Virus record (IMG/VR): IMGVR_UViG_3300042884_000193
Location: 1 to 64,000 of that record
Strand: one strand, 5' to 3'
Source: a virus
Length of the DNA stretch: 64,000 nucleotides
Position 1 is the first letter of the stretch; each line of letters starts with the position of its first letter. Below the pieces are notes generated by a model. That model did no database searches and was not told where the DNA came from. It saw only the letters and a list, made by a program, of their open reading frames with translations. Shown piece after piece: positions 2,883 through 32,100 of the stretch. The translations under genes were made by a program, and so were the position numbers.

Positions 2883-2885
2883 TGT

Positions 2886-3437: not shown

Positions 3438-3459
3438 CTAAATTTGTAAAAACCAAATA

Positions 3460-13700: not shown

Positions 13701-16700
13701 TAGAAACTATATCAGCATAGAAGTCAGCTTCTTCAGTAGTCAGACCATCATATCTTTTACCACCTCCGTATTTTTCTTCATTGATTCTTTGCTGAGCTTG
13801 TCTTACCTCATCTAAAATATCATCGGGTACATCTAATCCAAGTAACTCTCCAGTGTCTGGATCTCTGTATGCCTTGTTTACATTGCGGAGGAATATCTCA
13901 TCATCACTCATGGTTGAGCGCTTCTCCTCAGGAATTTTATCAAAGATTGCTTTTCTCTGCTCGAGTAACTCCTTTACCAGATCATCAAACTCTTTGGTAG
14001 TTCTTTTCTTTGTATTTTCTGTAAGGAACTGATCTACAGATTGCTTAAACTCATCACTTGCAGGATCAATATTTTTATTGATTAATCTCTGCATATAGTC
14101 AGTAATAGCAGTTTGGAAGGCTCCCTCATTCTTTACTTTAATTTTATACTGCCTCTTCTCATTCATCCACTCTCTAAGCAACTTAGCTTTAGTAAGAGGT
14201 TTGTTAGTATCTGTATCTACCTTAGGATCACCATTGATATATTTATCTGATGTTAACTCTGATATCTCTCTTAATATTTGTTTCTTTCTAGTGAGAACTT
14301 CCGTATATGCATTAGGATCATTGTAGAATGACTTATCTAAAGAGTTAATCTCTTGCCACTTCTTACTATACTCCTCTCTTGCTTCACGTCCTTCAGGTGT
14401 ACTATCTATTTTGATGTCTGGAGCATATACTCGAACATCAAAATCCATGTAGAAATACTTAAGCTCATAGTTAAATTTATCAGCTTTAGCTTGTCTAAGG
14501 TTATCCTTGTCTGCCTGTGTACCGCTTTTTTCAGCAATGTCAGCAAGCTCTTTAATATTTTTATCTTGAAGTGCTCTGAAGTATCTATAATTTTTATGTG
14601 GAGAAAGTATAGTCCATACAGGAAACTTAACTAAGTTACCGTTTTTATCATTCTCATAAGACTCATCTAAAAATGTAACAGCTTCTCCATACGCCGCAGG
14701 ATTTAATGATTTGTCTAGTCCATTTTCACGGAGCTTAGGTCCTATTATCTTATTGAATTTATCTTGGAACTTTGCAGTACGCAAGTCTACATCTGTCAAT
14801 CTATTTTTAACAAACATTGCAATACTTGACACAACCGGGTCTTGGTTGTGAAGGTAACTCTCTAAGAAACTATTTGCTTGGCTACCGTCTCCTAGTTTAC
14901 CTGATAAGATCATTTCAAACTTCTCTGGTGTTAAACGGATAGCTTCATACTTTGCTTTCCAATCTTCTTGCTGTCTGATGTAACCATCTTTTTTCTTACC
15001 GTCAGAAGCATCAATTCTCTTTTGGAGAATATCAATGATATTAGTATACTTCTCATCAATCTCGGCAGCCATAGGCATAAGTTGCTCATACAACACAGGT
15101 CCAATAGCTGCTCTATCTACACGGTTAATTGTCTTATTCAGCTGATCAACTTCATCTTGGATGTTTGATATAAGTGAGTATAGTGGTGAATTAGTTTTAA
15201 TATACGCCCCGGCAATCTGCGGGTTGTCTAACTCCTCTTTAATTACTCGTATATAACCAGTCCAGTAGTTTGCAAAACCTTTGTAGAATGTAAGAGCATA
15301 CATTGCCTCTACAGACTTCTCAGGTGTAACAGCATCTGCTGCTTTGTTTCTAGCATCCTCATTGATCCTTGTTACAATATTCTGAAGCTTGTATAAGTTA
15401 GTAGCAAATACCTCAGCTCTTACTGCAGCCTGACGCATTTCTGCTTCTACTGTTTCTGCTTCTCGATAGATTTTATCCGACTGAGCGTATAGGTTATTCT
15501 GAATTTCTCTAAGCTCATTATTACTGAATCTATCTTTAAGTAGGTTAGCAATCTCTTTTGTATAACCGTTGTCCTTTAATTTTTGTAAGTAATCCGCCGC
15601 CGAATTATATGTAAAGGTTACTTGTTTGGCAATGGTATTGCTATTTAATTTAAGTAAGTCTTCCACAACATCATTGCGGTTTTCCATGTAGTCAATAACA
15701 TCTTGCTCTGTAATATCTTCTGCTGTAATGTCAGCAATCTTTTTATTCAAGAGCATCTCTGCTAACTCGTTAATAGTGGTATCTAAACCAAGCTTATCCA
15801 ATCTTACTTTAGTATCACCTTTGCTAAACAGCTTACGTAAGAACTGTCTAATGCGGTATAGTATATTACCAATTGCTGTCTTAAACTGCGGCGTCTCTGT
15901 GTTACCCTCTGTTCTATTCTGAAATGCTTCAGTCATAGCTTTTACTATAACCTCATCATAAACCTTAGGAGAATCCTCAGACTCATTAGGCTTACTTGCT
16001 AGAACTTCATTGTATATAAGTTGCCCTTCTTGTGAAGAAAGCAAGTCGTCAATTAATGTGTTATATAACTTAGGGTTCTTTACGCGCAATGCTTTTACAA
16101 ACGGGTGAGAGAACTCGTGAAATGCCATTTGTGGTGTAACATTGTCACTAACAAAGTATGCAGCACCATTCCAAAAGAATGCGGGCTGGTTATTGTAAGG
16201 TTGATTAAGGTCTCTGTGAATCTGTTTAGCCTCTTCCACGGTAATAAAGTTAGCCTCAGCAGTATTGCCAAGGTTATCTATAAGGGTACCGATAAGAGCT
16301 CTTACTTGTTGGTTAGGTTTATTAGTTATAAACTCTGCTGCTGTATTCTGTAGACTTGACTCATTAGCTTTGAAGTTCTCATACTGTATGTATAGATCTA
16401 GCTCATTAACCATAACACCACTTGCATCACGGGTTACTCCCTCACTTAATATATTGTCTGTACTAAACAAAACTACATACGGACTATCAGAAAACATAGT
16501 ATAGTCTATACCCTTGTATCCTTTATCCCTAAGGAAGTCATAGAACTTAGCTTGGTTCTGTAATCCCTCAACGCCATCATCAAAAAGATCATACTGAATG
16601 CCAGTTTGGTTTTGGAACTCAGTTGTCATCTGACGGTATATTTTAGTATCACCGGCAAGCGTACCTGCTAAGTCAATTGTAACTCTTCTAACATTACTTC

Positions 16701-17016
16701 CATAATCCTGCGCCTCAGCCGCATCCATTGTAAAGTAATTTACACTGCGGTTGTCAAGCTCATTAAAACCTTGGAACATTGACACCGTCCTAACTGGAGT
16801 AATAAACTCAGACGCAATCTCAGGAAAGCGGCTTTGGTATTGAAGAACTTTAGAAAGATCCTCTTTCATAATAGATCTAACAACATCTTCTACTGGGCGT
16901 ACTACACCTCCTGATCTAAAGACAGCATCTTTTACTGCTTCAAATAAACCTACACCTTCAGTTTCAGACTTTAATTTTGCCCATTCCGGGCTGCTAGTAT
17001 CTACTCCGCAATACAT
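10735..17016 (-). CDS. Giant polyvalent virion-cargo protein: ART-like, zincin and LysM domains
   Basis: 2093 residues. Residues about 78-192 look like an ADP-ribosyltransferase of the polyvalent type: N-Y-F-T-M-D-A-A-E-A (93-102), then F-L-R-D-K-G-Y-K-G-I-D (161-171) and Y-V-V-L-F-S-T-D-N-I. A zincin metallopeptidase follows with H300-E-F-S-H304 and a trailing helical I-R-Q-F-L-R-K-L-F segment. The centre (500-1400) is long, charged and helical. A LysM-like repeat occurs near residues 1737-1785 (L-P-G-E-T-L-D-Q-I-A-K-K-Y, then I-K-E-L-N). The end is helical with a few hydrophobic stretches (I-L-I-N-S-I-L-I-R-L-L). It is the last of the giant genes, 5 bases after the 3512-aa gene. Proteins in this position of crAss-like genomes are packaged and ejected with the RNA polymerase; that role is inferred here. 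Confidence 0.75.
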   Translation of the reverse strand: MYCGVDTSSPEWAKLKSETEGVGLFEAVKDAVFRSGGVVRPVEDVVRSIMKEDLSKVLQYQSRFPEIASEFITPVRTVSMFQGFNELDNRSVNYFTMDAAEAQDYGSNVRRVTIDLAGTLAGDTKIYRQMTTEFQNQTGIQYDLFDDGVEGLQNQAKFYDFLRDKGYKGIDYTMFSDSPYVVLFSTDNILSEGVTRDASGVMVNELDLYIQYENFKANESSLQNTAAEFITNKPNQQVRALIGTLIDNLGNTAEANFITVEEAKQIHRDLNQPYNNQPAFFWNGAAYFVSDNVTPQMAFHEFSHPFVKALRVKNPKLYNTLIDDLLSSQEGQLIYNEVLASKPNESEDSPKVYDEVIVKAMTEAFQNRTEGNTETPQFKTAIGNILYRIRQFLRKLFSKGDTKVRLDKLGLDTTINELAEMLLNKKIADITAEDITEQDVIDYMENRNDVVEDLLKLNSNTIAKQVTFTYNSAADYLQKLKDNGYTKEIANLLKDRFSNNELREIQNNLYAQSDKIYREAETVEAEMRQAAVRAEVFATNLYKLQNIVTRINEDARNKAADAVTPEKSVEAMYALTFYKGFANYWTGYIRVIKEELDNPQIAGAYIKTNSPLYSLISNIQDEVDQLNKTINRVDRAAIGPVLYEQLMPMAAEIDEKYTNIIDILQKRIDASDGKKKDGYIRQQEDWKAKYEAIRLTPEKFEMILSGKLGDGSQANSFLESYLHNQDPVVSSIAMFVKNRLTDVDLRTAKFQDKFNKIIGPKLRENGLDKSLNPAAYGEAVTFLDESYENDKNGNLVKFPVWTILSPHKNYRYFRALQDKNIKELADIAEKSGTQADKDNLRQAKADKFNYELKYFYMDFDVRVYAPDIKIDSTPEGREAREEYSKKWQEINSLDKSFYNDPNAYTEVLTRKKQILREISELTSDKYINGDPKVDTDTNKPLTKAKLLREWMNEKRQYKIKVKNEGAFQTAITDYMQRLINKNIDPASDEFKQSVDQFLTENTKKRTTKEFDDLVKELLEQRKAIFDKIPEEKRSTMSDDEIFLRNVNKAYRDPDTGELLGLDVPDDILDEVRQAQQRINEEKYGGGKRYDGLTTEEADFYADIVSKLQHNKNNPKDRLFISKEDMDKKVALDAKKQAGDPLSKADKLALRMIRQQLEQLRVKQATDQYLNTFNALLEGLDTDSVVALINSTTVNRKNIEILLERKDIIDELAHQGKKDGTLEEQELYKNSKKFAAFFAKNHVNGVKRDETTKANYEVWEPLNVWREVMPTEEKYYETLTYVNAEGVDVTIPFAPSDAYYSSYIDPKWRTEKIVGKTVDNKYKWLPRVKEDAPADSPFINEQYYEIKKNNPALFELIQATTELYLDAQNKKPKGSKMYLDAPRFRIEGGLVGGSVERFRTGKDENLIKRWYQNARDFFKDAKDDYDQGIVSTTQRRLSVGDFFDDDRDGIPVHGISNLEHQNVSLELSSTILRYAYSLEVQKELLDMNPILKAVKNAMRDPLTGQYNAIQPIEDMNKKMRSARSKWFNRGGKRENIRAKTIDNFYDWMFLGQNNTGVLSQKWIVNLTNKLFKRASLGFFGLNIDSALVNYFDAVLQNNIEAAAGKYLNLVSYQRGLARSGGVMASISFSLYADEKDKSLDVQVSMAFDPTQGYFQKTLGRSLTRSLARDAAEMTWLTSTRQWLDMQASLSVLWGMMEHKKITRTVDGVPITINYADAWEKVDGQLKLKDGINLEYSHEKVTHDVLPGETLDQIAKKYDVTVDRIKELNRLKSNDLDQIEQLKISNSEEFKKFRNRVQGVITNIQGAFAKFDQPEANRYVAYRYITFLQKYFTRGLLKRFAHRGKFWSPEERYDIGTGDSEMGFYVQALSGILRNVRNVGNGAMFMTDEEKKSTMRMVAEAAQILINSILIRLLFGFDMGDDDKFNKIRERSGPLPGLFTDEDNPDFDFGGWLGNHALYLLLKTKADAEAWIPIPGLGLDDYTQKLALTSAVYGTTFEAYSKILGMLPATIAGDDAAFYVRDIGPYSWQKEGGSKMINYTMKAIGITGNNVEPGLAIKNFVQIEKKKAQQSIFDILLSNLTFGNSYEKGIENKRN

Positions 17017-17021
17017 ATTTA

Positions 17022-20000
17022 TTAAGATTTAAAGCACGTTCTTTGTTCTATAATATCAAGCACCATATCATCTGTTATGTTAAGAGCTGGTGTAACATCT
17101 GGTTTATCAGTCTTTAGTACAGTGTCAGAGTTTGTATTTACAACTCCAAGTTGAGCTAGAGCTTCAGACAAATATAAGAAAGTTTTAGTGCCCTTAGCCT
17201 TAATTTTATTCATGGCTCCACCTGTGAAATCACTTGCTCCAATCATACCTTGACCTAGTCCAGTTTTAGGAGTAAAGATTCTAATAGATTCTCTTCTAAC
17301 ACCTTTGTCAACTAACTCCTGGATCTTATTTTTAATACGGGCTATGTCCTCATTGATCATCATAACATTGGTATCATAGCTTGCATCTGTGAAAGACGCA
17401 TCATTATTGTATACCATATTATAAGTTCTCATTGGTATCAAGTTATCAGTACCTACATCATTCAGGATACCCACAACATTATTAAAGGTAGACAAACTCC
17501 ACGCTGGGTTTGTAGTACCGTTGTATAGGAATATGTTTCCTTCTTCCTGGCTAGCAAATACTTTCTTAATATCGGCACTAACTAAGTTATTGATACTATA
17601 CTTGTTTCCAGCAGAGAAGGTAACGGCACTTTCTTTTATACCCGTTGCTTTAGAGTTAGTCTGTGCACCCATTTTGTTGAAGGTACCATCTACCATGTAA
17701 GATCTAAATTGACGGCGAGACTTAAAGCTAGATTTACTGTTAGCCTGTTGGAACCTAGTTATATATTCTCGTATAATATTTTTCTTAGTCTTACCACTAG
17801 CAGCCTGAACAGCTTCTTCTAACACAGGATTTAAGTTTCCTTTGTCTACAAATTGCCATAATGCATTCTCACCTTTACCAGAAATACCAGTTGCAAGTAA
17901 AACAACTGTCGGTAGACGGCTAAAGAATTTAGCAATAGCTTCTTTCTCTTGGTAAGGAATGTTTAATCTTATACTTGTAGGATTAGATAACTCTTTGAAG
18001 TTCTGATAAAGCTTTTCTTTAAGTGGCTTTGAAGGTCTACGGGTCTTTAAGATAAGAACATTAGCTCCTGAAAATAAACCTTTACCGATTGCAGATGCTC
18101 TTAGCAGATCTACCAATGGGTACATTTCCTGAAGGGTAGGGTACTTTAACTTAAGTGCTTCAAATTGCATAGCATAGCTAGCCTCCCCATTAGGAATACC
18201 TCTAAATAACTTATAAATATTAAATACTTGATCTAAAGTCCTATCTCTTAAAATTTCTTCATAGACCTCACGCATAGCTGCGGCGCCTTCTTTTTCTGCA
18301 GGAATAAGTGCTGGACCTAAAACTTTGTTTAGTTGCTCTAGTTCATTAGCTGTAGCAGCTGCTGCACTTATTATATTAACTTTTTTATGAGCTCCTTGTG
18401 ATAAGAAAGTTCTTAGTTGCTGAGCACTAGGGTTAAGCAAGTAAGGTATTTTTCTTGAGTTAATTATCTCAATTGCTCTCTTAGTCTTAGTAGCATCAGC
18501 CACACCATATATAACACATGCATCAGCAAGCTCAATGTTTAAACGTAATACATTTTTAGGATCGGTTCCCTTAATGTTAAATCCAGCAAGATCATTTAGA
18601 TTTTCACCGGTTCCTGTATAACCATCAAGTTGATAACCAAATCTATCCGCAAGGTCCATTGTAAGCCTACCTATACCAGCACTACCGTCTGTGATTAATT
18701 GCTTAACCTCAAGTGGAGCATTTAATGTAAGTGAGTTCTGAGCACGCAACTCTTTTTTCTTCTGAATAAGTCTAGTTTTAAATTCAGGAGTAGTAATTAA
18801 TTGATCAACATCTGTGATTGATCTTAATATCTCTCTGTTCAGAATAAAGTTTTGATACTCCTTCTCAGTAGAGAAAAGATCAGTATCTATTTTAGCGGTA
18901 CGTACCTGCTCATTACTTATGTCTTGATGGTTAGCTACAAGAGTTGCATAGTTATTCTTTATAGACTCCTTTGATACATAAAGAATACCATTTAATACAT
19001 AGGCACCAAATGATTTAAGACCAGCTGCCTCAGCTACAGGTAATTTATTATTTACCGCAAGACCTTTGAATTCTTTTATAGTATCAATGTCTACATCATT
19101 TAAATAGTTCTGCAATAAGAACTGAATATATTGATTTTTAAGTTCATTGAGGGTAACTTCCATGTCATCATAAGTGTTCTTATCAATGCTTTTGATTGAG
19201 GACCACTCAGCTATAAGTATGTCATTGAAATCTTTATCTTCTCTTACTCCAAATAAACCACCTATTAAGTCTTTAGCAACATCTGCAATACGGAATGATG
19301 ATATAACAGAGTTATTAATCATGTGGTCAAGACCTTCAGGATTAAATCTTGCATCTTCAAGCATACCTTTAGCCAACAAATCTTTCTGCATAGTAGCAAA
19401 TAGTCTAGACTCTTTCTTAACGTCAAAGTTTGTATTTCTTTTAAGTTCTGCTAGTGCTTTACCAACGTCCTCCATCTCAAAAAAATGGAATAATACAGCA
19501 TAGTCCTCTGGTCCATATTCAGTGCTCTTATTTAAGATTTTTTTATTCAGGGTATCCTTGTTAAATAGACTCTCTGTATTGTAGTTATCTATAAGCTCAC
19601 GACCAAAAGTATAGGTCAAGTTTCCTAAGCTATACTTACCAGAACTCTCTTTTGTTCCGGTTTTAGGATCAATACTTAATGGTTCTAATTCTAAAGCTTT
19701 AAGTAGATCTATAGGATAGTCAAGTGTATTTTTTGCATTCTCAGAAATCAACATGTCTTTACGAGACTTTACACGGAAGAAGTTAGCATTCTCAGGTGCA
19801 ATGTTGCTAAGGAATGCAAACGGACTCTTAAGTATAGACATGCGTCTTACATACTCACGTATAATAGGCTGATTAACAAAGGCTGCTACATCTTCAAGAG
19901 CAACACCTGCTTGAAGCATTGCAATCATAACCGGCGCCACAGTCTTAACACCATTTAAATAAAAGATCCATGCATCTTTCTCAACGTCTACCCAACCATT

Positions 20001-23000
20001 AAGCAATTCTTCAAGTTGGTTTACAATCTTCTTGTAGTTGTTTTTACCACGTAATGCTGCTAATGATACTACAGGAACACCATCTAGTATCAAGTAGTTG
20101 TGGTCAAACTCAATAGTAAACATGCGCTTTTGTGATGACTTACCTTCAGTCTTGTACTCTCTATTTAGGTAGAGGTTAGCTTGGTTCATCATAGCATCCC
20201 CTGTAATACTTACAGCACCAATACCCAAAGATTGAAAACCTACACTATTCTCACTTAACTTTTTAATGTTATGTAAGATTTCAAAGATACGAGTAGGGCT
20301 AGTAGTCTTACCAATAGTACCATCTGCACGCAACTTATGATTATAGGTCATAACGTATTGCTCATATTTCTTAGCAATTGGTAATGCCGTTTGAGTTGTA
20401 ACAGGTCTGACAAAGTCAGAATAAGACATCAGGTCAAGTAAACCTTTAACAGAGTTTAAGAATTCATTCTCTACTCCTCTCATTCCTTTATCAGCCATAT
20501 ACACCTTTTCAGTAAGTGCGGCTTTAGCTACAGCGTATACTTGTTTCTGCTTTGGTTTAAGTGAGGCAATACCATCTTCCTCAACCAAATCAAGTATTTT
20601 ATTAAGGTACTTGATATCCAGTTTGAGGTCAGGCGAAAGAGTTTTCATTTCCTCAATATAGTTTTTATCAAACTCTCTTTGGAATGAAATGTTAGGGAAG
20701 TAACTAACCTGCTTATCTGTATCAAAGTCAGTACCTGATTTACCTACAACTTCCATAGGAAGAACTATAATAGGTCCCGCATTTTCATCAAGGAATTCAT
20801 ATACCTGTAAGTACTCAATAAAGTTTTCTTTAGCTGTAGGGATACGTACAGTAACTATAGTAATAAGATCCTCATACTTGGCTAACCATGACTCTTCTCT
20901 AATTAATTGATTAAGAGCTTGCAATCTTGTAATAGGTGCTTCACTTTCAGCTACTCTCTGGGTAGTCTCTTCCATCATAAGTAACTTCTTGAAGTCACCA
21001 TTTATACCCATTTTAGCTCCGGCTTTTGTAAAGTGACCGTCTTCTGTTATGTTATAAAACGGTAAGTCACCAGTACCTAGATACTTGAGTCTCTCTTCTT
21101 CAGTAGCATATCTAAGTTTCTTTTCTGCATAGTTTCTGGTAAATCCAGAGTTACTTACTTGTACCAACTGATCACCTTTAATTTTAGGTTTAATGAGTGA
21201 TTTATTAATCATGCTCATTAAAAGCTTTTCTATATCATCTGCACCAAAGCTCAAACTTAAATCACTATTGATTTTACCAGTCTTTGGATCATAAGATATG
21301 TCATTTATTATATGGCTTGGTAAACCGAGAACAGCTAGTTGATTTCTCAAAAACTCAACCATGCCTTTAGCATTATTGGTTTTATTGCCTTCTTCGTCTA
21401 TTACACCAAATCTTTTATATAGCTTTTCAGTATTAGCTGCAACAAGAGACAACAATGCTTTTTTGTAGCGATTAACTGCCACATACTTTGGTGACTCTTT
21501 CTCTTTTTGATTTTCCGTTAACTCACTCCAAGCTTTAATTCTATCAACAGGTTTACCATCAAACTTAAAGTCAACAGGTACACCATACTCATCCATATTA
21601 TTAATGATGGCTTTTCTCATCTGTGTAGCAAGGTTTGTCTTGCCTTTGTACTTGTCTGAGATTTCAGCCTGCTTCTTAAAATACTGTAAGAATAAAGTGT
21701 TAGGTGTGAATCTATAGTTCTCATCAACAAGAGCCAACTCTCTATTTTCTATATCGGAATAGAAAAGATCTGTTTTACCATTATTAGTGAAATGCATAAG
21801 CTTGCTACCTGATTCATATGTAGCAATATCCATATTCTGCTCTACCATTTTGTTATGAAGTACATTTAATTCTGTACCTTCAATAACATTAGGGATCAAT
21901 GGGAAGATCTCAAACTTAAGAAGTGCATTTAAAGGTAATCCGGTTCCTGATAAAGGACCATCATATTGCATCTTAAGGATAGGGAATATCTGTAAAAGAT
22001 CTGATCTAGATTCTGTAATGTACTCCTTCTTAAGTATCTTTTTATAAAGTGCTTCTTGCTCAGGGCTCCATTGATCAAGTTGATCACATAGACCTCTATA
22101 GAAGTCAAATGCTGCCCAACCTTGACCATCTCCCTCTTTCATATTACCATAGGCTTCATCAACCATTTCAGTAATTTCTGCAGTAAGCTGCTCCCTCAAA
22201 ACTGCTTGTTCCTCCTCACTAGCATCCTTATACATATCTAGTGCTTCAAGTGCTGCCATGTCATCACCCAAAATACTATTCAATATCATATCATAGTATA
22301 TTGACTTAATCTTAGCTTCTTTAAAAACAGCAAAAGTTGCTTGTTGACTGAATGGTTTAATAAATGTCGGCTCAACACCTACATACTTTACGCCATTATA
22401 AGTATAGTCAGCAAACCATGGAGAATCAACGTATGGCTTACTTAAGAAATCATTTAAATAGTCAAGACGCTCCTTACTAAGTATTGGGAATTTACCAGAT
22501 GATTGTGCTGGGGCATTACGTTTATGGAATTCATCTGACGCATTGTTAAATTGCGCAGCATCACCATGTATAATAACAGTAGTTTCTATATTATGTATGA
22601 GTGAGTTTGTCACATAAGCCAGCAATGCGGCTTGGTAAGCATCTTGGTCACTAACTTCTGATCTTATACCATTAGACAAAGCCTCATTCCTAACTGTATT
22701 AATAACATTAGGATCAATAAAAGGATTCTCATTAGGGTATAGCTTTGCTATGTCACCAATAAGAGCATTCTGCGTATTGGAGTATTGTCTGATCAAATAG
22801 CTTCTGATATCTTTTATTACATTGTCTGCAATGTCACCACCTTCTTCAGATTCTCTAAAGGCTATATCAGCCATAAGAGCATCTAGGCTTTCTCCAGATA
22901 AACCGTATAGTTTATCCTTTGTGGCATCAGTAAAAATATCATCAAATAAAGTAAATACTGTACCTCTATCATAGAAGGTATTTTTACCATCGTTTGCTAA

Positions 23001-26000
23001 TGCTTCAGGTGAGTTAGGGTTTTCTTTTAACCAGTTGATTCTATCTAATTCCGCAGCAGCATATCCTACAAAAATATTAACAACTTTATCTAATCCTCTT
23101 CCTTTAACAGCTGAATTACTAATAAACTCAGCCGGCGAAACATAAAACTTTCTGGTATTTGATTTTAGAATAACAGATGTAGGTTTACCCGCAGAACGAG
23201 TACCTTCACTAACACCTTTTAAAATTACAGTGATAAAGTCTTGTTGAAGTTTACTGTAATCATCAAGATCAATGTTAGCAAGACCCTCACCAATACCATC
23301 TTTAATAACAGCAGTTCCACCTAAAAGAGTAATATCAAGTCTAGCTTTTGTATCTACAAATGCCGATGCACGCTTTCTCTCACCCTCAATGCTATTGAAG
23401 TTAAAGAGGTCATTCATAAGAACTAATCTCTTAACCCAAGGGTTTCTTCTATAGTCAAACTCACTAAGATGTGGTTGAGCTATAGTCTCACCATAGGTAT
23501 CAAAGCTATTCAGACCTCTTATTTTAACAGTAAGTGTACTGTTTCTCATAAACTCAGATTGAGCATTTCCATCAGGGCGTAAAGCCATGAAGTCAGATCT
23601 GTCCTCTGTGTATTTAAGATGCAGTCCTTGGATATTACTATATATAGTAGCAAGGCTTTTACCATCCTTTTGTTTAGGATTAACAACAGCATCTATACTT
23701 GAGACAAATTTTACATTATTCTCAATTAAGAATTCTAGATTGTTTAAAAAGTCTTTAACACGGCCGGTATTAAAGCGACCATTACTTTGAAGTCTTTCTC
23801 TTACTTGAGGTTTGTTAATTATATTAATCCCTAAAGCATGGAAAAATTCAATCTCACGTCCAAGATAATTGTTTTGGAACTCATCTAATACAGCTTGAAC
23901 ATCAAGTTGGTTAGGTGCTCCAATAGTTTCTTTAATATAAGGATGATTTTTAACCTGTTGGAAGTAATCATCCCAGTCTCTAGCTGCAGCTTTAGAGCTA
24001 CTTGATGCTACACCAAAGGTAGCACCACCAGATGTAAATGTTTCTTTTTTAGTTTCCTCTTCTTTAGTCCCAATTAACTCAATAGTAAGAGCTTCTATAG
24101 GAGTTCTTATGTAATTGAAGTCAGTTACAAAGCTAGCCCACATCTTAGATACCCAAGGGTTTCTAGTCTCAGGGTCACCTAACTTTTTCAAAAGCTGGAA
24201 TAAAAACGGAAAGTCTCCCGCTTGACTAGCTAACTGTGATCTAAATACAGACTCACTTGGATCTAAGTTATCTAAAACTTGAGATAGTTTGTTCCATACA
24301 TAGTCAAAGTCTACAAGCTTGGGAAATCCTAAATAGTCTTTCTCATACTCATACTCAGTTTCTCCAGTCTTAGTATTGACTTTTGGATCCTCGTACTTCT
24401 GAGTCTTGCTGTTATACTTAGGTTGTAGTAAACTCTCTACTAAGTAAATAGTTCTAGCATGTGCTTGCTCATAGATGGTATTCTCATTACCTGTAAGGTC
24501 ATATGTCTTGTTCTTTTCAGCAACAAACACAGTCTCATCTAGATCATCTTCTTGATCTAGCATTTTCTGATAAGCTAAGAATGATCCATTATCTTCATAG
24601 TGTTTAACAAATCCATAGGTCTCTGACATATTATCTACGTCCCCGAAATTGTCAACTGTTGTTTTAAGAATATAAATCTGATGTTCAAGAGTAGCAAGCT
24701 TCATTTGATACTCATCATATCTAGGATTAGATGCATCAAGATTAAGATCTTTTATTGCTTTGTACTCATTAGCAATAGCATTAAGTCTTTTTGTAAATGC
24801 ATTTTTAATAAACTTGTAAGTCTCTTTCTTAGAGTCTATAAGTAATTTTTGTGTATAAGCGCTTGTGTTAGAGTCAGCATTAAGCTTATCAATAAGACTT
24901 GATATAACAGAATTAGCTGATAGCATGACCATATCGGTCTCTGAATCATTTAAAACAGCATCACCCGTCGCAGAAATAATACTCTTTTCAAGTATCTCAG
25001 ATGAGACATTGGCATTATCAGCAGTGTATTTAGAGATATCACCAAGAGCAAGCTTTTGGAAGATCTCATTAATCAACGGTAATGATGTATCATAAGTAAG
25101 TACATCCTTGTAGGTTGCACCTCTTCTAAATAGCTTCTGAATAAAATCAAATATCTTTTTAAAAATGCTACGTGCAGCTCTACGCTCAATCTCCACTTTA
25201 CCATTAGAGATCATATAAGCACGAAACTCCTCTGCCAAGTATTCATCTAACTCTCTTTCTGTAGCTTCTCCAAATGTTTTAGTCTGGCCTTTATATGTAG
25301 TAAACTTCTCGGTTGCTTTATTAACAGCAAGCTCTTTATATAAACTATTTCTTTGATTACGAGTCAAGAACTTTTGAGTAAATCCGTGATAAGCCTCGTG
25401 GAAAATATCAATCTTATCAGAACCGGCATAAAGATTAATAGCATTTCTTGTCCAGGTTGCAACTGCTTTAGAGTTAACAACATTGAACAATACATTTATC
25501 TTGAAGTGCTTATTCAAACCTGTCTGATTGTACCACTCTTCTACTAGTTCGACTTGCTCTTTAAACTCTTCTTCTGATGCAAACTCATTTTTGTTAAGCA
25601 CCTTTTGTGCAAATGCTTTCTCAAGACCTTTTCTTTTGATTTGGTTGAACAAGTCATCCTCATCTTCAATGCTGTCATCAGCTGGACTAAAGAAGTCAGG
25701 AATAGCACCAAAGTCAATATTACTAGTTTCTACTGCAGGTTGTTCTCCAATTTTAATATTTTGATCAGCTTTGATAGAAAAAGTAATATATGGGTTCTTA
25801 CCTCTGATTTTTCCTTCAGCATCCAAACCAGCCTGTACACTGAAGTTATCTTTAATCCACTCACTATAATCTAAGTTGGTTGGTACAATAGCATAGCGAC
25901 CACTGCCATCATCTTGTAAAGTATAATCAAAAAATTGAGTAGGATCTACAAGTTTCTTCTTATCTATATTAAGAATAACTTTCTTATTATTTCTTAGAGG

Positions 26001-27560
26001 TGTCGTAAGGTAATTCTTAATAGCCGCGATTGTTTGTTCTTTAGTAAGAGTTTGTCTTCCGGTAGTACCAAGAGTAACATTGTATTGATCATCTTCTACC
26101 TTAGTTACAGTAAACTCATTAGGCATTGTGTAAATAAAGTTCTTGATTAGTTTCTGCTTATCAAGTGTTTTAATAGTCTCAGACTCTGGATCATTCTGGT
26201 AGTATGTATCTTCTACTAAAGTTCTGGCAATTAAATCAACATACTTTGCAGGTACGCCATAGTTAAATAGATCAACAGTTCTATTGTTTCTTAATACTAA
26301 TTCAGCATTAGCAATTCTATTTACCTGACGAACCTCCACAGTTCTTACAATAAAAGGCTGACCATCTAAATTAATGTCACGGATTGGTGTCACCTTCTGA
26401 ATCTTGGTATCTATAAAACCTTCAGATACCCCAGTAATTTCATTTACAATAAAATGTTCTTTATGATTTTGGTTGACATAATCATTTATCTTTTCAGCAA
26501 GAGCTGTTTCAGAAGCATATCTATCCTTGAACAATATTTCTTCTGCTGATATTTCCTCATCAGTAACCGTTTGTCCTTGTAACTCTTTATTATAGATATA
26601 TCTTTTAAGATGGCTCTTTGTAGCTTCTTCTATGGACTGATATGTCTGTCTAAGCTCTCCTTTATATTTAGTCTGTCGCTTTCTGAATCTATAGTAAATT
26701 GCTTTACCTTTTTGTTCAGATGTTACATTATACTTAGCATCAAAGAAAAGAGGCTCCCCTAAAGAATTGGTAATCACTTGAACCTTATCAAAGTTTTCTT
26801 GATACTCCGGTGAACCAAATCTTTCATAAATTGAATCTGCAGGTAGTGCACCTAACCATTTAGTAGTTAAATAAATAGGTATTGATGTACCAGGCAAATA
26901 GACTTTACCATCTACAGTGTTGGCATAAGGTATTGAAGATGCAATGTGGCTGATAAAACCAGTATAAAATCTTTTATTAATATCTTCTTTTTCAGCAGGT
27001 TTATTTGTAGTAGGGTCAGTATAAGTCATTTCACTATTCATCATAGTGCTAAGTACTGTAAACGGCTTAGCCTCATAAGTAACGGCTGCTTTGATTAAAG
27101 CTACATAGTCATTAGTAAGACCTACTTCCTGAAAAGTTACAACCTGCTCAACTGCAGCATTAATAGCTGCAACATCCGGCTTTGGTTTAGACTGTAAAAC
27201 TACATCAGATAATACACGACTAACAGCCTCACCCATTGTCTCACCTGCTTGTGGAGTAATTGAACCAAAGGTTTCAGTCAGCTTAGCTAACTCAATGAAA
27301 TCCAATCCATTAGCGGCTAAGTAACCAAATAGAGGAACACTTGATCCAGCAGCCATTGCTACTGTTTTTGGTAGGTTCTTTACGATGTCAGCTGCCTTTC
27401 CCTCAAGACTTGGATCTTCCTTAATCTCATTACTTACCTCATCATAGACTTGCCCAATGTAATTACGCAAATTAAAAGGTTGACCAGCCTCCTTAACTAT
27501 AAGGAGATCAGCTTGTACCTTTTTAAAAAAATCTTCAGGTTTTTGTATCGGACAACTCAT
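17022..27560 (-). CDS. Giant virion RNA polymerase with zincin and SLOG-like domains
   Basis: 3512 residues. A zincin metallopeptidase lies near 650-830 with H721-E-A-Y-H725. The RNA polymerase core contains F-P-L-I-P-N-V ... S-G-S-K1920 and, 360 residues later, G-T-D2278-F-D2280-T-D2282-K, the D-x-D-x-D metal-binding loop of two-barrel RNA polymerases, as in the virion polymerase of crAss-like phages. R-I-P-T and I-I-V-L-P just upstream fit the same family. At about 2950-3080 a Rossmann-like segment (G2959-S-A-G-I-G-R, later N-I-E-L-A-D-A-C-V-I-Y-G) resembles SLOG/putative molybdenum-carrier domains; polymerase-type C-terminal helices resume after it. At 3512 aa it is well over 1000 residues longer than the roughly 2200-aa crAss-like enzyme known from Cellulophaga phage phi14:2. 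It would transcribe early genes after ejection into the host. It sits 3 bases after the 515-aa gene. Confidence 0.85.
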   Translation of the reverse strand: MSCPIQKPEDFFKKVQADLLIVKEAGQPFNLRNYIGQVYDEVSNEIKEDPSLEGKAADIVKNLPKTVAMAAGSSVPLFGYLAANGLDFIELAKLTETFGSITPQAGETMGEAVSRVLSDVVLQSKPKPDVAAINAAVEQVVTFQEVGLTNDYVALIKAAVTYEAKPFTVLSTMMNSEMTYTDPTTNKPAEKEDINKRFYTGFISHIASSIPYANTVDGKVYLPGTSIPIYLTTKWLGALPADSIYERFGSPEYQENFDKVQVITNSLGEPLFFDAKYNVTSEQKGKAIYYRFRKRQTKYKGELRQTYQSIEEATKSHLKRYIYNKELQGQTVTDEEISAEEILFKDRYASETALAEKINDYVNQNHKEHFIVNEITGVSEGFIDTKIQKVTPIRDINLDGQPFIVRTVEVRQVNRIANAELVLRNNRTVDLFNYGVPAKYVDLIARTLVEDTYYQNDPESETIKTLDKQKLIKNFIYTMPNEFTVTKVEDDQYNVTLGTTGRQTLTKEQTIAAIKNYLTTPLRNNKKVILNIDKKKLVDPTQFFDYTLQDDGSGRYAIVPTNLDYSEWIKDNFSVQAGLDAEGKIRGKNPYITFSIKADQNIKIGEQPAVETSNIDFGAIPDFFSPADDSIEDEDDLFNQIKRKGLEKAFAQKVLNKNEFASEEEFKEQVELVEEWYNQTGLNKHFKINVLFNVVNSKAVATWTRNAINLYAGSDKIDIFHEAYHGFTQKFLTRNQRNSLYKELAVNKATEKFTTYKGQTKTFGEATERELDEYLAEEFRAYMISNGKVEIERRAARSIFKKIFDFIQKLFRRGATYKDVLTYDTSLPLINEIFQKLALGDISKYTADNANVSSEILEKSIISATGDAVLNDSETDMVMLSANSVISSLIDKLNADSNTSAYTQKLLIDSKKETYKFIKNAFTKRLNAIANEYKAIKDLNLDASNPRYDEYQMKLATLEHQIYILKTTVDNFGDVDNMSETYGFVKHYEDNGSFLAYQKMLDQEDDLDETVFVAEKNKTYDLTGNENTIYEQAHARTIYLVESLLQPKYNSKTQKYEDPKVNTKTGETEYEYEKDYLGFPKLVDFDYVWNKLSQVLDNLDPSESVFRSQLASQAGDFPFLFQLLKKLGDPETRNPWVSKMWASFVTDFNYIRTPIEALTIELIGTKEEETKKETFTSGGATFGVASSSSKAAARDWDDYFQQVKNHPYIKETIGAPNQLDVQAVLDEFQNNYLGREIEFFHALGINIINKPQVRERLQSNGRFNTGRVKDFLNNLEFLIENNVKFVSSIDAVVNPKQKDGKSLATIYSNIQGLHLKYTEDRSDFMALRPDGNAQSEFMRNSTLTVKIRGLNSFDTYGETIAQPHLSEFDYRRNPWVKRLVLMNDLFNFNSIEGERKRASAFVDTKARLDITLLGGTAVIKDGIGEGLANIDLDDYSKLQQDFITVILKGVSEGTRSAGKPTSVILKSNTRKFYVSPAEFISNSAVKGRGLDKVVNIFVGYAAAELDRINWLKENPNSPEALANDGKNTFYDRGTVFTLFDDIFTDATKDKLYGLSGESLDALMADIAFRESEEGGDIADNVIKDIRSYLIRQYSNTQNALIGDIAKLYPNENPFIDPNVINTVRNEALSNGIRSEVSDQDAYQAALLAYVTNSLIHNIETTVIIHGDAAQFNNASDEFHKRNAPAQSSGKFPILSKERLDYLNDFLSKPYVDSPWFADYTYNGVKYVGVEPTFIKPFSQQATFAVFKEAKIKSIYYDMILNSILGDDMAALEALDMYKDASEEEQAVLREQLTAEITEMVDEAYGNMKEGDGQGWAAFDFYRGLCDQLDQWSPEQEALYKKILKKEYITESRSDLLQIFPILKMQYDGPLSGTGLPLNALLKFEIFPLIPNVIEGTELNVLHNKMVEQNMDIATYESGSKLMHFTNNGKTDLFYSDIENRELALVDENYRFTPNTLFLQYFKKQAEISDKYKGKTNLATQMRKAIINNMDEYGVPVDFKFDGKPVDRIKAWSELTENQKEKESPKYVAVNRYKKALLSLVAANTEKLYKRFGVIDEEGNKTNNAKGMVEFLRNQLAVLGLPSHIINDISYDPKTGKINSDLSLSFGADDIEKLLMSMINKSLIKPKIKGDQLVQVSNSGFTRNYAEKKLRYATEEERLKYLGTGDLPFYNITEDGHFTKAGAKMGINGDFKKLLMMEETTQRVAESEAPITRLQALNQLIREESWLAKYEDLITIVTVRIPTAKENFIEYLQVYEFLDENAGPIIVLPMEVVGKSGTDFDTDKQVSYFPNISFQREFDKNYIEEMKTLSPDLKLDIKYLNKILDLVEEDGIASLKPKQKQVYAVAKAALTEKVYMADKGMRGVENEFLNSVKGLLDLMSYSDFVRPVTTQTALPIAKKYEQYVMTYNHKLRADGTIGKTTSPTRIFEILHNIKKLSENSVGFQSLGIGAVSITGDAMMNQANLYLNREYKTEGKSSQKRMFTIEFDHNYLILDGVPVVSLAALRGKNNYKKIVNQLEELLNGWVDVEKDAWIFYLNGVKTVAPVMIAMLQAGVALEDVAAFVNQPIIREYVRRMSILKSPFAFLSNIAPENANFFRVKSRKDMLISENAKNTLDYPIDLLKALELEPLSIDPKTGTKESSGKYSLGNLTYTFGRELIDNYNTESLFNKDTLNKKILNKSTEYGPEDYAVLFHFFEMEDVGKALAELKRNTNFDVKKESRLFATMQKDLLAKGMLEDARFNPEGLDHMINNSVISSFRIADVAKDLIGGLFGVREDKDFNDILIAEWSSIKSIDKNTYDDMEVTLNELKNQYIQFLLQNYLNDVDIDTIKEFKGLAVNNKLPVAEAAGLKSFGAYVLNGILYVSKESIKNNYATLVANHQDISNEQVRTAKIDTDLFSTEKEYQNFILNREILRSITDVDQLITTPEFKTRLIQKKKELRAQNSLTLNAPLEVKQLITDGSAGIGRLTMDLADRFGYQLDGYTGTGENLNDLAGFNIKGTDPKNVLRLNIELADACVIYGVADATKTKRAIEIINSRKIPYLLNPSAQQLRTFLSQGAHKKVNIISAAAATANELEQLNKVLGPALIPAEKEGAAAMREVYEEILRDRTLDQVFNIYKLFRGIPNGEASYAMQFEALKLKYPTLQEMYPLVDLLRASAIGKGLFSGANVLILKTRRPSKPLKEKLYQNFKELSNPTSIRLNIPYQEKEAIAKFFSRLPTVVLLATGISGKGENALWQFVDKGNLNPVLEEAVQAASGKTKKNIIREYITRFQQANSKSSFKSRRQFRSYMVDGTFNKMGAQTNSKATGIKESAVTFSAGNKYSINNLVSADIKKVFASQEEGNIFLYNGTTNPAWSLSTFNNVVGILNDVGTDNLIPMRTYNMVYNNDASFTDASYDTNVMMINEDIARIKNKIQELVDKGVRRESIRIFTPKTGLGQGMIGASDFTGGAMNKIKAKGTKTFLYLSEALAQLGVVNTNSDTVLKTDKPDVTPALNITDDMVLDIIEQRTCFKS

Positions 27561-27563
27561 TGT

Positions 27564-29111
27564 TTAACATCTAAGGGTTTTAATAAAATCATATCCAAAT
27601 TTACGCAAATTATCCATGTGTTCCATAACATCTTTAACAGCTTTAGCAACAGCCTCAGGATTGCTAAAGAACTTATCCATTACTGAATCACTTTCAGCAA
27701 TAATCTCAGTATACTCATCACTAACGTTTACAAAGTTAGGAGCAGTATCTCTTAACGGGAAGTACTCAGTCAGGATATCTTCTCTTTTCATAAGCATAAT
27801 ACCACCATTGGTTATAACGGTAAAGTTATCTCCATTACTTTTTACAACCATTCCTGTTACACCATCAGTTGATACAAAGTAAGAACCTTCATTAAGGTTC
27901 TCATTACCTATTACCTCATCAAATGGAGTACTTCTTGTTTCATATAAGTTAGTTAAAAACTGGAGTGTCACACCATTATCCTGGTATTCTTTTAAATTAT
28001 TAAAGTAGTCTAATAGCAAACCATTATATGTGCCACTTGTTTCATCAAAGGTTTTAGCTTTATCAAATAGACCTTCAACAGCAACTTGTGATCTAGTTTT
28101 AGATACAACTGGTTGAACTCCAGTATCTTGTGCTTTTTTCTCTTGTTCTAACTTTAATAGTCTTGCTGCTAGGGCATCTGAATTAGCACTTCTAGACTGA
28201 GCAGTCTCACGAGGACTAGGTAGCGCAGCAATAGACAATGACCCATTGCTCTGTATCAAAACAGGTTCTCCATTAGCATCTAATGCCTTGTTTATCTGTG
28301 ATGGGTTTAATACTTGGCTACGATCAAAAGTTACTACAAACCCATCAGAACTAGCGCTTTCTGAATAGATACCCAGGTAGCCTTTACTTTTAACATATTT
28401 AAAAAACTCATTCTGTATAGCAGCTATATTACCTTGTTTGACTATACGTGGATCTAAAGGTTCAGCTTTTTTAAGTATCCTGGTTCTGTAAATGTCCTTA
28501 AGTTCTCCCTGTGTTTTATTCAGGGTAATGTAAGTTCCACCACGATATTCATTATATGAATCTATATCTCTTTGTACAGCTGATCTTTCCGTACCCTCTT
28601 TATACACTTTTATATTTCCAACCATAGTACCATTGTTAGACTCAAGAGATCTAACAAACTCTTCTGGTGTTACATTAAATTTAGTTGGAATTGTTCTCTG
28701 AGTAGTGGGTATTCTAAGGTCTATTTTATTTTTTGTACCGCGCTCAAAATCTATAGCAAGTTCTCGATATTCTTCAGAAGCTGCTAGAAGATATTTACCT
28801 CGTGTATCAACAAATTGACTTGAGTCATAGTCTTCAGAAAAAGTCTCAGGCGCAGCTTGTGTAAAATAACTAAACTCACTATTGCTATACTTAGCGTCTG
28901 TTGAGTAAACACGTCTTACAGCACTCCACCCATTTGTTAAATTATTAGCTGCACGTGTATAAACTTTAAAGTAATCACGCTTTGCAGCAGGTGCATTATT
29001 GTCATATGCACGTAGCAAATCAAGATAAAGCTCAGATGGTTTACCGTTTGGTGCTGCAAAGTTTACAGGATTACCATTATCATCGTATATAAGGGCGCAG
29101 TTTACTGACAT
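27564..29111 (-). CDS. 515-aa cargo protein with weak ART-like pattern
   Basis: A 515-residue protein. The region from about residue 60 to 280 has F-S-Y-F-T (about residue 80), Y-R-T-R-I-L-K-K-A, then F-F-K-Y-V-K-S-K-G-Y and G-F-V-V-T-F-D-R-S-Q-V-L. This order resembles the polyvalent ART-like domains of the 2093- and 3176-aa proteins but is weak. The middle is low-complexity, and the C-terminal 120 residues are a compact acidic domain including G-V-T-G-M-V-V-K-S-N-G-D, possibly a small beta-barrel. It overlaps the 3176-aa gene by 10 bases and is followed after 3 bases by the RNA polymerase gene. Co-packaging with the polymerase is inferred from position. Confidence 0.6.
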   Translation of the reverse strand: MSVNCALIYDDNGNPVNFAAPNGKPSELYLDLLRAYDNNAPAAKRDYFKVYTRAANNLTNGWSAVRRVYSTDAKYSNSEFSYFTQAAPETFSEDYDSSQFVDTRGKYLLAASEEYRELAIDFERGTKNKIDLRIPTTQRTIPTKFNVTPEEFVRSLESNNGTMVGNIKVYKEGTERSAVQRDIDSYNEYRGGTYITLNKTQGELKDIYRTRILKKAEPLDPRIVKQGNIAAIQNEFFKYVKSKGYLGIYSESASSDGFVVTFDRSQVLNPSQINKALDANGEPVLIQSNGSLSIAALPSPRETAQSRSANSDALAARLLKLEQEKKAQDTGVQPVVSKTRSQVAVEGLFDKAKTFDETSGTYNGLLLDYFNNLKEYQDNGVTLQFLTNLYETRSTPFDEVIGNENLNEGSYFVSTDGVTGMVVKSNGDNFTVITNGGIMLMKREDILTEYFPLRDTAPNFVNVSDEYTEIIAESDSVMDKFFSNPEAVAKAVKDVMEHMDNLRKFGYDFIKTLRC

Positions 29112-32100
29112 GATTTTGTTTTTTCTTGAGCTACGTTATTTATTTCTTCTTCAGAAGGATTAATATCAGAAAGCTGGATAACCTTTTGTGTACTAGATAC
29201 CGAAATAATCAAAGCACTTCCTGCATTAGGATGTATTTTATTGAAGCCATCCCACTGGTCACTCTTAAGTACTCCATTTTTAGATGCAGGTTTTGCACTA
29301 AATGAGCCGGCATCAAATGCACCAATTGTGAGGTCTTCCGGTTTTACCTGAAACTGCTGCATGATATTCTCACCCTCCTGCTTAATAGCGTTGATACTTC
29401 CTGTAAACTCTCTAACAATTGTATTACCCTTCTGATCTTTAAAGATAAAGATAACAGTTGATCCAGAGAAGCGGCTATATAAATCTTTACCATTAGCCTT
29501 TTTACTAAAGGTAAAGCTATAAGCCTTATCACCAGATTTAGTTGTTAAACAGTAAGCTTTATCATATAAGTTAACTTGAGAGTTAAAATCAATATCTCCA
29601 AATTTCCATTGGATTAATTTAGTAATTGCATTATCATCAGCAGTTAGCTCAGAAGCTAATTTAAATTGCATATTAACAACATCTTCTCCATCTTGTCTAG
29701 GCCTAAATTTAAATACCGGAACATAATCTGTTGGTTTAACATCATATGTACCTATACGAGATTTGAAATTATTCTTTGCTTCATTAAACTTAGTAACTGT
29801 TGTATAACGACTTAGGTCACCTCCTGTATTATCCATAATGTAGAAGTGGGCTACACCAACAGTGTTATCATATGTAGTTTGACCTACACGATCTCTTGTA
29901 CTGTTACTGGCTCCTGTAATATACTCAAATCCTACATCATTAAACCACTGATTACGGTACATCATAATACTATCTAGTAACTGTTTTCCAGGTCCTATAG
30001 CGCCTTGACTATCAGCAAGCCTTCCTAAGTTTTGGAAGTAAGTATTTTGTCTGATATACTCAAGTTTATTATTTGATTCTATGATTGCTTTTGCATCAGA
30101 TAACATTTCATAGTTAACAGCCTCCTCTTTAACAGCTGCAATATCATAGATACCATACTTAATTAAACCTCTGTACATGGTTTGCTTATAAGAATCAGAT
30201 ATAGGTAGTATTGACATAGTATTATCTATAACATTGACCATACTCCATACAGGTCTTTCAGCCATTTCTTCACCTATCTCAGCTTCAGTATTTCCGCTAA
30301 AGTCAAATCCAGCCACACCTGTATATGTAGAAAGGGCAATCATTAACCCAATGGTCATCTTCTTGAGTTTTCTAATTATACGGCTGATGATACCATCCTT
30401 TTTTGTTCTAGGTGCTTTATCAGCTTCAGTTTTACTTCTAGCAAAGTTTGCAGTATTCAAATAGTTAAGAACTGCATTTTTAATACTAGTTACAACATCA
30501 GTTATAGATTTACCCTCTTCATCAGCAATCTCTTGTAGATCTTCAGCTGAAGCCTCCTCAGCAATAAATACATCAATAGGTTGGGCTATTCTATTTAGTA
30601 AGAAAGTAACTGGGTCCATACCTGAAGCCATAGCATCACCTAAAACATCAAGCGGCGTCTGTAATGTGTTATTGATAAACTCTTCATAAAGAGCATCAGA
30701 CATTAACAAACCATCTTGTATTTTGATAAATGACTTAGTCTTGTTATAAGTTACACGTCCTGCAGAGTCTTTGAAAAGAACCATTTCCTTAGCTAGGCTT
30801 TGGAACTGAGCTTGAATCTCAGGAGACAACCTAGATATAAAAGATCTGAATGGTGTATTAGTCAAATACTGAATAACAAGTTCCTGTGCAGGATTCTTAT
30901 CAAACATGTAATTAATTTTCTCAATATATACGCCTACATTAGGGTCACCTCCTGCCTTACTTATTTCTTGCAGAACAGGGCGTAGTATATTTATAAGAGA
31001 CTGTGCCTGAGCATTGTAATCTTTGTCAGATTTAGGCCCAGTCCTATCCATATACATGTGAAGAATTCTATGTAGCGTATTCTCCATAGTACTTCTATTC
31101 TCTAATAGAACATTGTCGCCACGCTTGGTACCTAATGCTTCTAAGTTAAGAATAGTATTTGCATCAATAGTCATTCCTTGCTCAGCAAAGAACTTTACAA
31201 AACCATACTGGGTTAATTGTTCTACTACAAAGTCTGCAAGTATCTCACGAGTATTATCTACCACTTGCGGTTTAGTAGATGACATCTCAGGAGTTCCTGC
31301 ATTAGGCTGTACACCTCTCTTGACTCTTCTGGCTCCAACAGTCTTACTTGCTTTAATTAAAATTTGCTTAAGTTTTCTTAGATACTTCTGAATTGAATCT
31401 AATACTTTAGCTAGTTTCTCTTTAAGCTTACCGCCAGTTTTCTTATATGCTCTACGTAATTTCTCATAGTTGTTCTCTAAAGCTTGTGGCATTCTAGAGT
31501 AAGACTTTTTCATAGCATCACGGACAGAACCTAATGCATCTTTAATACTTTGCATTGTTTCTTTAGCAAGCTCTGAAAATGGAGGAGTTTTACCTTCATT
31601 AGCACGACGCTGAGCCTCATCCATCTCTTGTTCTACCTCTCTAGAAGTATCATCAATTCTTGATTCACCTTCTTTAACATCATCACTATCCTCAGGGTTG
31701 CTATTGATTTCCTCATCTACTTCTTCCTCTTCTGTCTTTATAGACTCACCCCCAGAAACAAATTTTTTAAATCCCTCTTTGTCTTGTTTAGTTCCCAGTA
31801 TGTAAATTTGTTCAGGCTCAAATACAACTAAAAATGGGCTATCCTGATCTCTAATTCTACCTTTATTAGTTAATGCATTATAGTTATTATCTAATAACCA
31901 CTGTACGTCTTCCTTAGAAATGCTTACTAAATCAATTTCTTTTTGGTCTTTATTTCTTTTTTCTACCTGCTTAACATTATCATAGGGTCTAACATTTACA
32001 AGGGCACTATAAACTTTTTTATTTTTATCTTTGAAAATAAACTTTTTAGTATATCCTTCCGCCTCTGTTTTATTATAAGCAAAATAAATCCCCTCTTTGG

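What the first reader, a model, noticed from the sequence alone, without database searches (positions are those of the whole stretch)
17022..27560. A 3512-aa virion RNA polymerase fused to a zincin and a SLOG-like domain
The D2278-F-D-T-D2282 loop and upstream S-G-S-K1920 mark a crAss-like two-barrel RNA polymerase. The same chain has H721-E-A-Y-H725 (zincin) and a nucleotide-binding-type G2959-S-A-G-I-G segment near 2950-3080, apparently inserted among polymerase C-terminal helices. A SLOG domain could sense or process a nucleotide signal and act on the host or control the polymerase; this combination would be new to me.
Basis: partly seen in the sequence, partly recalled or inferred. Interest (0 to 1): 0.8.

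Follow-up and report, generated by a model that had tools for sequence, protein, structure and literature searches.

The report
SLOG domain inside phage virion RNA polymerase
The window encodes a giant RNA polymerase that a crAss-like phage probably carries into its host, and a small domain from a nucleotide-binding family (SLOG) has been spliced into its rear half, with the usual binding residues largely eroded; relatives carry other extra domains in and around the same polymerase, so it looks like a carrier of exchangeable payloads.

Summary
Observation confirmed, on the minus strand. The 3512-aa ORF is a crAss-like two-barrel RNA polymerase: it matches phi14:2 gp66 (PDB 6vr4, profile E=1.4e-159), with K1920 and DFDTD2278-2282 conserved. 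The zincin (HEAYH721, downstream Glu) is ordinary: all 87 relatives with complete N-termini carry it. Residues 2931-3088 are a clean insertion. Flanking blocks align with relatives that have 0-16 residues there, while one ortholog (L206, 44% identity) shares the insert. The insert is a circularly permuted YpsA (cpYpsA, PF12694) SLOG domain: hhalign probability 94.6% (200 shuffles far below); L206's copy passes Pfam's cut-off; the AF2 model's best PDB match is 3IMK. Its GQTGxD signature is largely lost: 11 of 38 conserved family positions kept, against at least 31 in ordinary members. Nucleotide sensing or processing is therefore not supported by the residues. SLOG-RNAP fusion recurs in relatives at two other places. 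Near-identical polymerases differ by whole cassettes: cpYpsA+NADAR versus ART-like+AlkB-like, or DUF7831 present versus absent. Best reading: a packaged, injected polymerase that also carries exchangeable accessory domains; this SLOG is a divergent passenger, probably a binding or docking module rather than an enzyme. New variant of a known kind.

The parts
17022..27560 (-). Whole ORF: giant crAss-like virion RNA polymerase, 3512 aa
24891..25643 (-). Zincin-like metallopeptidase domain (residues ~640-890); boundaries approximate
   Evidence: conserved with relatives E 1e-44 to 1e-52; 87/87 relatives with complete N-terminus have HExxH
25386..25400 (-). HEAYH motif, residues 721-725; conserved downstream Glu in LDEYLAEEFR (E777)
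20571..22193 (-). RNAP catalytic core, residues 1790-2330
   Evidence: profile vs 6vr4_A E=1.4e-159; alignment A1
21801..21803 (-). K1920, invariant lysine
   Evidence: invariant column K131 of A1 and A6
20715..20729 (-). DFDTD metal-binding loop, residues 2278-2282
   Evidence: invariant in A1; DFD/DYD forms in 127 loci
18771..20570 (-). RNAP C-terminal part 1, residues 2331-2930
   Evidence: aligns to relatives E~1e-70
18297..18770 (-). Inserted segment, residues 2931-3088, holding the cpYpsA-type SLOG domain (core ~2952-3085)
   Evidence: insertion; shared with L206; SLOG identity:
18669..18686 (-). GSAGIG, residues 2959-2964: degenerate counterpart of the GQTGxD signature loop
17661..18296 (-). 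RNAP C-terminal part 2, residues 3089-3300, resuming after the insert
   Evidence: relatives E 2e-16 and weaker, Suoliviridae cr4_1 E 3e-6, AF2 pLDDT mostly 74-94
17025..17660 (-). C-terminal tail, residues 3301-3512, weakly DUF7831-like (3373-3438)
   Evidence: DUF7831 E=0.0064, below cut-off; shared with L079 and L021

Best explanation
This is the virion RNA polymerase of a Crassvirales phage: one giant chain with an N-terminal part, a zincin, the two-barrel polymerase core and a helical C-terminal part. A cpYpsA-type SLOG domain has been inserted into the C-terminal part (shown by sequence). By analogy with phi14:2 and phicrAss001, the protein is packaged in the capsid, ejected with the DNA and transcribes the early genes (inferred). 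The polymerase also acts as a carrier of exchangeable accessory domains that enter the cell at the very start of infection; in relatives these are SLOG, NADAR, ART, AlkB-like, DUF7831 and helicase domains (cassette exchange shown by sequence, function inferred). The SLOG here is one such passenger. It was inserted without disrupting the conserved blocks on either side and was kept through the divergence of two lineages at 44% identity, but has lost most signature ligand residues. Its most likely present role is therefore a binding or docking module with changed specificity (a protein partner or a different ligand), not a canonical nucleotide-processing enzyme.
For: RNAP identity. Zincin is the family norm. 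Clean insertion: L079 aligns 1-2930/1-2909 then 3089-3512/2926-3347, and L039 has no residues there; gap 187 in the window against 56 or less in most of 90 sequences. Ortholog L206 keeps it. SLOG identity. Erosion of signature: 11/38 positions kept, L206 16/38, other members at least 31/38; identity to L206 is 30-34% in the SLOG against 40-56% elsewhere. Other SLOG placements. Cassette swaps: L042/L052, L243/L248, several C-terminal tails. Virion cargo precedent: PMC10172136, PMC7886860.
Against: No experiment or proteomics for this phage, so packaging and injection are by analogy. Loss of signature residues is judged from sequence only; a pocket could be rebuilt with other residues. The AF2 model of the SLOG used an alignment of cpYpsA members, which biases the fold; without it the insert was not folded confidently. 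Only two sequences carry the insertion at this site, so evidence that it is maintained by selection is thin.
Confidence: 0.6

Rival explanations
1. The SLOG is a working sensor, decoy or enzyme for host NAD+/ADP-ribose-type immune signals (for example cyclic ADP-ribose variants of Thoeris-like systems), delivered with the polymerase and either regulating it or mopping up the signal.
For: Viral SLOGs are mostly of the YpsA clade and are predicted to act on ADP-ribose derivatives (PMC9503650). The Thoeris effector ThsA has a SLOG (PMC7272460). Relatives pair cpYpsA with NADAR or ART domains in the same chain. A neighbouring giant ORF has an ART-PolyVal match. L206 keeps the acidic residue of the signature.
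Against: In the window copy GxD becomes GxG, the glycine loop is altered in both copies, and the RT, GxxxT and AGxR positions are lost in both. In B. subtilis YpsA, mutating the GxD/E motif abolished function (PMC6459960). The domain evolves faster than the rest of the chain.
Confidence: 0.22
2. The SLOG is a decaying passenger with no function, kept only because precise loss in the middle of an essential protein is rare.
For: Signature erosion and faster divergence; found at this site in only the window and L206 among about 115 distinct relatives.
Against: Frame, length, scaffold residues (G2980, N3008, D3013, P3039, N3062) and the second half are kept between lineages at 44% overall identity. 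Presence/absence differences between near-identical relatives (L243/L248) show that precise loss or gain does happen.
Confidence: 0.15
3. The 2931-3088 segment is ordinary polymerase sequence that merely resembles a nucleotide-binding loop.
For: In a nine-sequence alignment it could be forced onto the Suoliviridae C-terminal helices.
Against: Relatives align on both sides with 0-16 residues between. The SLOG profile match is far above shuffles, and the orthologous copy passes Pfam's cpYpsA cut-off.
Confidence: 0.02

Closest known systems
Virion RNA polymerase gp66 of Cellulophaga phage phi14:2 (PDB 6vr4) and Crassvirales RNAPs
   Same: Core region, conserved lysine and DxDxD loop; the only significant structural match for the C-terminal model
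   Different: gp66 (2180 aa) has no HExxH motif and no SLOG insertion; the window protein is 3512 aa
Suoliviridae fused RNAPs (cr1_1, cr50_1, cr53_1, cr4_1)
   Same: HExxH about 1430-1530 aa upstream of DFDxD in one chain; C-terminal block shared with cr4_1
   Different: No SLOG found; cr50_1 carries a C-terminal helicase-like extension (sequence, not tested by a profile)
cpYpsA / 'putative molybdenum carrier' family PF12694 (PDB 3imk; Maribacter phage Colly_1 SLOG protein)
   Same: Five-stranded Rossmannoid order, scaffold glycine, Asn, Asp; profile match over the whole domain
   Different: GQTGxD, RT, GxxxT and AGxR positions lost; inserted in a polymerase rather than standing alone; the window copy has no Pfam hit of its own
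N4-type virion RNAP (gp50)
   Same: Giant virion RNAP fused to an HExxH zincin-like domain; N4-like RNAP chains also carry ART, lysozyme or PBECR domains (PMC5512222, PMC12633501)
   Different: N4 RNAP belongs to the single-subunit (T7-type) polymerases, an unrelated catalytic fold (established knowledge); no SLOG reported in the papers read

Membership tests
Crassvirales two-barrel virion RNA polymerase | DxDxD loop in homologous context | tested here: met
Crassvirales two-barrel virion RNA polymerase | Conserved lysine upstream (K1920) | tested here: met
   invariant in A1 and A6
Crassvirales two-barrel virion RNA polymerase | Two double-psi beta-barrels in one chain | tested here: inconclusive
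   inferred from profile match to 6vr4 over the core; barrels not modelled here
Crassvirales two-barrel virion RNA polymerase | Phage belongs to Crassvirales | tested here: met
   TerL matches cr1_1 E=7e-40; portal and major head protein PHROG matches; RNAP tree
Crassvirales two-barrel virion RNA polymerase | Packaged in the virion and injected | not testable with these tools
   only by analogy with phi14:2 and phicrAss001
Zincin-like metallopeptidase | HExxH plus downstream Glu | tested here: met
Zincin-like metallopeptidase | Zincin fold and activity | not tested
   no structure prediction spent on it
cpYpsA SLOG (PF12694) | Whole-domain profile similarity | tested here: met
   hhalign 94.6%; ortholog L206 99.4% and above Pfam cut-off
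cpYpsA SLOG (PF12694) | Window copy itself reaches the Pfam cut-off | tested here: not met
   no hit
cpYpsA SLOG (PF12694) | GxD/E signature (SGGQTGxD) | tested here: not met
   TDGSAGIG in the window; D kept but glycines changed in L206
cpYpsA SLOG (PF12694) | Rossmannoid SLOG fold | tested here: inconclusive
   AF2 pLDDT 86, pTM 0.80, Foldseek 3imk E=3.4e-5, TM 0.63 support it, but the alignment was made of family members; the model without them did not fold the insert
Polyvalent proteins (multi-domain injected proteins) | Several unrelated activities in one virion-type chain, coded near virion genes | tested here: met
   RNAP, zincin and SLOG here; SLOG, NADAR, ART, AlkB, helicase in relatives; virion-type genes nearby

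The most novel reading that the evidence does not exclude
The giant RNA polymerases of environmental crAss-like phages are a general delivery vehicle: an essential, injected enzyme into which phages plug and swap anti-host modules (SLOG, NADAR, ART, AlkB-like, DUF7831) at a few favoured sites, several of them linked to NAD+/ADP-ribose signalling, so that counter-defence arrives in the cell together with the first transcription.
Probability: 0.45. Interest if true: 0.8.

Novelty: new variant of a known kind. Interest (0 to 1): 0.6.

Why it matters
None of the papers I could search describes a SLOG domain fused to a virion RNA polymerase, and none describes whole-cassette exchange between near-identical crAss-like polymerases. 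If the polymerase is a payload carrier, it gives a direct, testable route by which crAss-like phages could deliver counter-defence before any gene is expressed, and it marks sites in the polymerase that tolerate whole-domain insertion.

Tried and rejected
Pfam, NCBIfam and PHROGs searches with the window SLOG gave nothing useful. tblastn of the C-terminal segment and of the SLOG in phages gave only chance hits; the Goslar hit was a helical protein, and L206's SLOG found none. Single-sequence searches of viral contigs found no relatives; alignment-based searches were needed. phmmer matches of the whole protein to nicotinamide phosphoribosyltransferase (E~0.05, residues 288-385) and the T7_gp14 match (E=0.0026, below cut-off) were judged chance. 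I suspected that L018's 465-aa insert at the same site was DUF4326-like; Pfam gave no support. L243's DUF7831 insertion first looked like the same site, but its flanking sequence, read by eye, places it roughly 90-100 residues earlier, so I do not claim an identical site. The AF2 model of 2250-3345 did not fold the insert confidently, so it does not confirm the SLOG fold independently. One script's iterated SLOG profile shrank to 110 columns and drifted; its hits were re-read by eye and recounted with a fixed profile.

Full report
What was checked. The ORF 17022-27560 lies on the minus strand and encodes 3512 aa. The window is part of a 119,556-base virus record, G000, with a TerL that matches Crassvirales cr1_1 at E=7e-40 and PHROG matches for portal, major head protein and other virion proteins.

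Polymerase. tblastn of residues 1700-3512 against named phages finds crAss-like polymerases or their unannotated kin, including phi14:2 gp66 (E=6e-10) and cr108_1 (2e-13). In an alignment of 11 sequences, K1920 and G-x-D-F-D-x-D are invariant. The profile matches the solved structure 6vr4_A at E=1.4e-159, and the C-terminal model's only significant structural match is again 6vr4 (E=1.5e-5). The two-barrel architecture is inferred from this homology; it was not modelled here.

Zincin. Searches with alignments gave 127 relatives with a DxDxD ORF (115 distinct cores). Every one of the 87 with a complete N-terminus has an HExxH 1294-1777 residues (median 1525) before the DxDxD loop, with a downstream Glu conserved in the examples printed. 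The same order occurs in Suoliviridae. This fusion is the norm, not a novelty.

Insertion. The block 2330-2930 aligns with relatives at E~1e-70 and the block 3110-3300 at E down to 2e-16, while 2930-3110 aligns with none of the first 80 relatives at that position. BLASTP with L079 gives 1-2930/1-2909 and 3089-3512/2926-3347. With L039 the two blocks meet with no residues between. Over 90 sequences where both blocks were measured, the gap is 187 in the window, 473 in L018/L214, about 100 in L237 and L240, and less elsewhere. The closest relative, L206, aligns end to end (44% identity, 1-3511/1-3557) and contains the insert. The block after the insert is real polymerase-family sequence: it reaches Suoliviridae cr4_1 (E=3e-6) and is modelled mostly at pLDDT 74-94. 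In that same model, built without SLOG homologs, the insert was not folded confidently.

Identity of the insert. Relative L052 holds a canonical cpYpsA SLOG elsewhere in its chain (PF12694, E=1.1e-24). Against a profile of 37 cpYpsA sequences, the window segment scores 49.6 (probability 94.6%, E=7.2e-8); 200 shuffles reach at most 22.2, and windows of the protein that do not overlap the SLOG reach at most 16.7. The orthologous L206 segment gives probability 99.4%, E=4.6e-21 and passes Pfam's curated cut-off, 27.4 against 26.2 bits. An AF2 model with the cpYpsA alignment has pLDDT 86 and pTM 0.80 with alternating strands and helices; its best PDB match is 3imk, a putative molybdenum carrier (E=3.4e-5, TM 0.63). 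The alignment biases that model, so the sequence evidence carries the conclusion.

Is it a working SLOG? Of 38 positions conserved in at least 80% of the other cpYpsA members, the window keeps 11 and L206 keeps 16, while ordinary members keep 31 or more. The signature SGGQTGxD reads TDGSAGIG here. L206 keeps the acidic residue but not the glycine loop. In B. subtilis YpsA the GxD/E motif is needed for function (PMC6459960). The domain is 30-34% identical between the two lineages against 40-56% elsewhere. Scaffold residues (G2980, N3008, D3013, P3039, N3062) remain. I therefore do not file it as a functional cpYpsA member: it is a diverged cpYpsA-type domain, more likely a binding or docking module than an enzyme.

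Wider pattern. YpsA-type SLOG sequence occurs in other polymerases of the clade: before the zincin (L052 in cp order; partial or classical-order matches, several weak, in L054, L056, L058, L059, L067, L072, L094, L239, L245) and in C-terminal tails (L037, L047, L053, L096, L247). Tails and N-terminal segments also carry NADAR, AlkB-like 2OG oxygenase, ART-PolyVal, DUF7831 and helicase domains, some below Pfam cut-offs. Near-identical polymerases differ by whole cassettes. L042 and L052 are 92-97% identical on both sides of about 300 residues that are ART-like plus AlkB-like in one and cpYpsA plus NADAR in the other. L243 holds a DUF7831 domain (E=2.4e-35) in a 152-residue segment that L248, 92-95% identical, lacks. 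Several other pairs differ in their tails. These are metagenomic contigs, so chimeric assembly cannot be excluded for any single pair; for L052, a contig from another sample (L232) shows the same arrangement.

Mechanism. Inferred from relatives: such polymerases are capsid cargo, ejected through the tail and used for early transcription (PMC7886860, PMC10172136). The zincin may process the chain or a host protein (proposed for polyvalent proteins, PMC5512222; not tested). The SLOG rides along; viral YpsA-type SLOGs are predicted to act on ADP-ribose signals (PMC9503650), but the residues here argue against the canonical role.

Novelty. Crassvirales RNAP, zincin fusion and cpYpsA SLOG are each known. 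The papers searched and read mention no SLOG-RNAP fusion, but the primary structure paper for phi14:2 and the 2018 crAss-like survey were not held, so absence from the literature is not established. I rate it a new variant of a known kind.

Noticed in passing
window 31805-32191 (minus), in ORF 29102-38632: The neighbouring 3176-aa ORF has an ART-PolyVal (ADP-ribosyltransferase in polyvalent proteins) match at residues 2148-2276, E=4.6e-5 but below Pfam's cut-off.
   Followed up: no
window 10735-17016 (minus): The 2093-aa ORF next to the polymerase has HEFSH at residue 300 and a LysM domain at 1742-1774 (E=3.5e-8).
   Followed up: no
L042 vs L052: Two polymerases 92-97% identical carry different ~300-aa cassettes before the zincin: ART-like+AlkB-like versus cpYpsA+NADAR.
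   Followed up: yes
L243 residues 2923-3074: A DUF7831 domain (E=2.4e-35) inserted in the polymerase C-terminal region, absent from near-identical L248, roughly 90-100 residues before the SLOG site.
   Followed up: partly
L018 residues 3176-3640: A different insert of about 465 aa at the same site as the SLOG, no Pfam match; part resembles a segment of L240.
   Followed up: partly
L037, L047, L053, L096, L247 C-terminal tails: The SLOG halves occur in the opposite order to cpYpsA (profile ~43-127 before ~3-46), suggesting the classical YpsA order.
   Followed up: no
BFVD A0A516MIS3_3 and UPI00191DE41A: Unnamed large viral proteins with structural matches to the SLOG model (E=2.6e-8 and 3.2e-7).
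   Followed up: no
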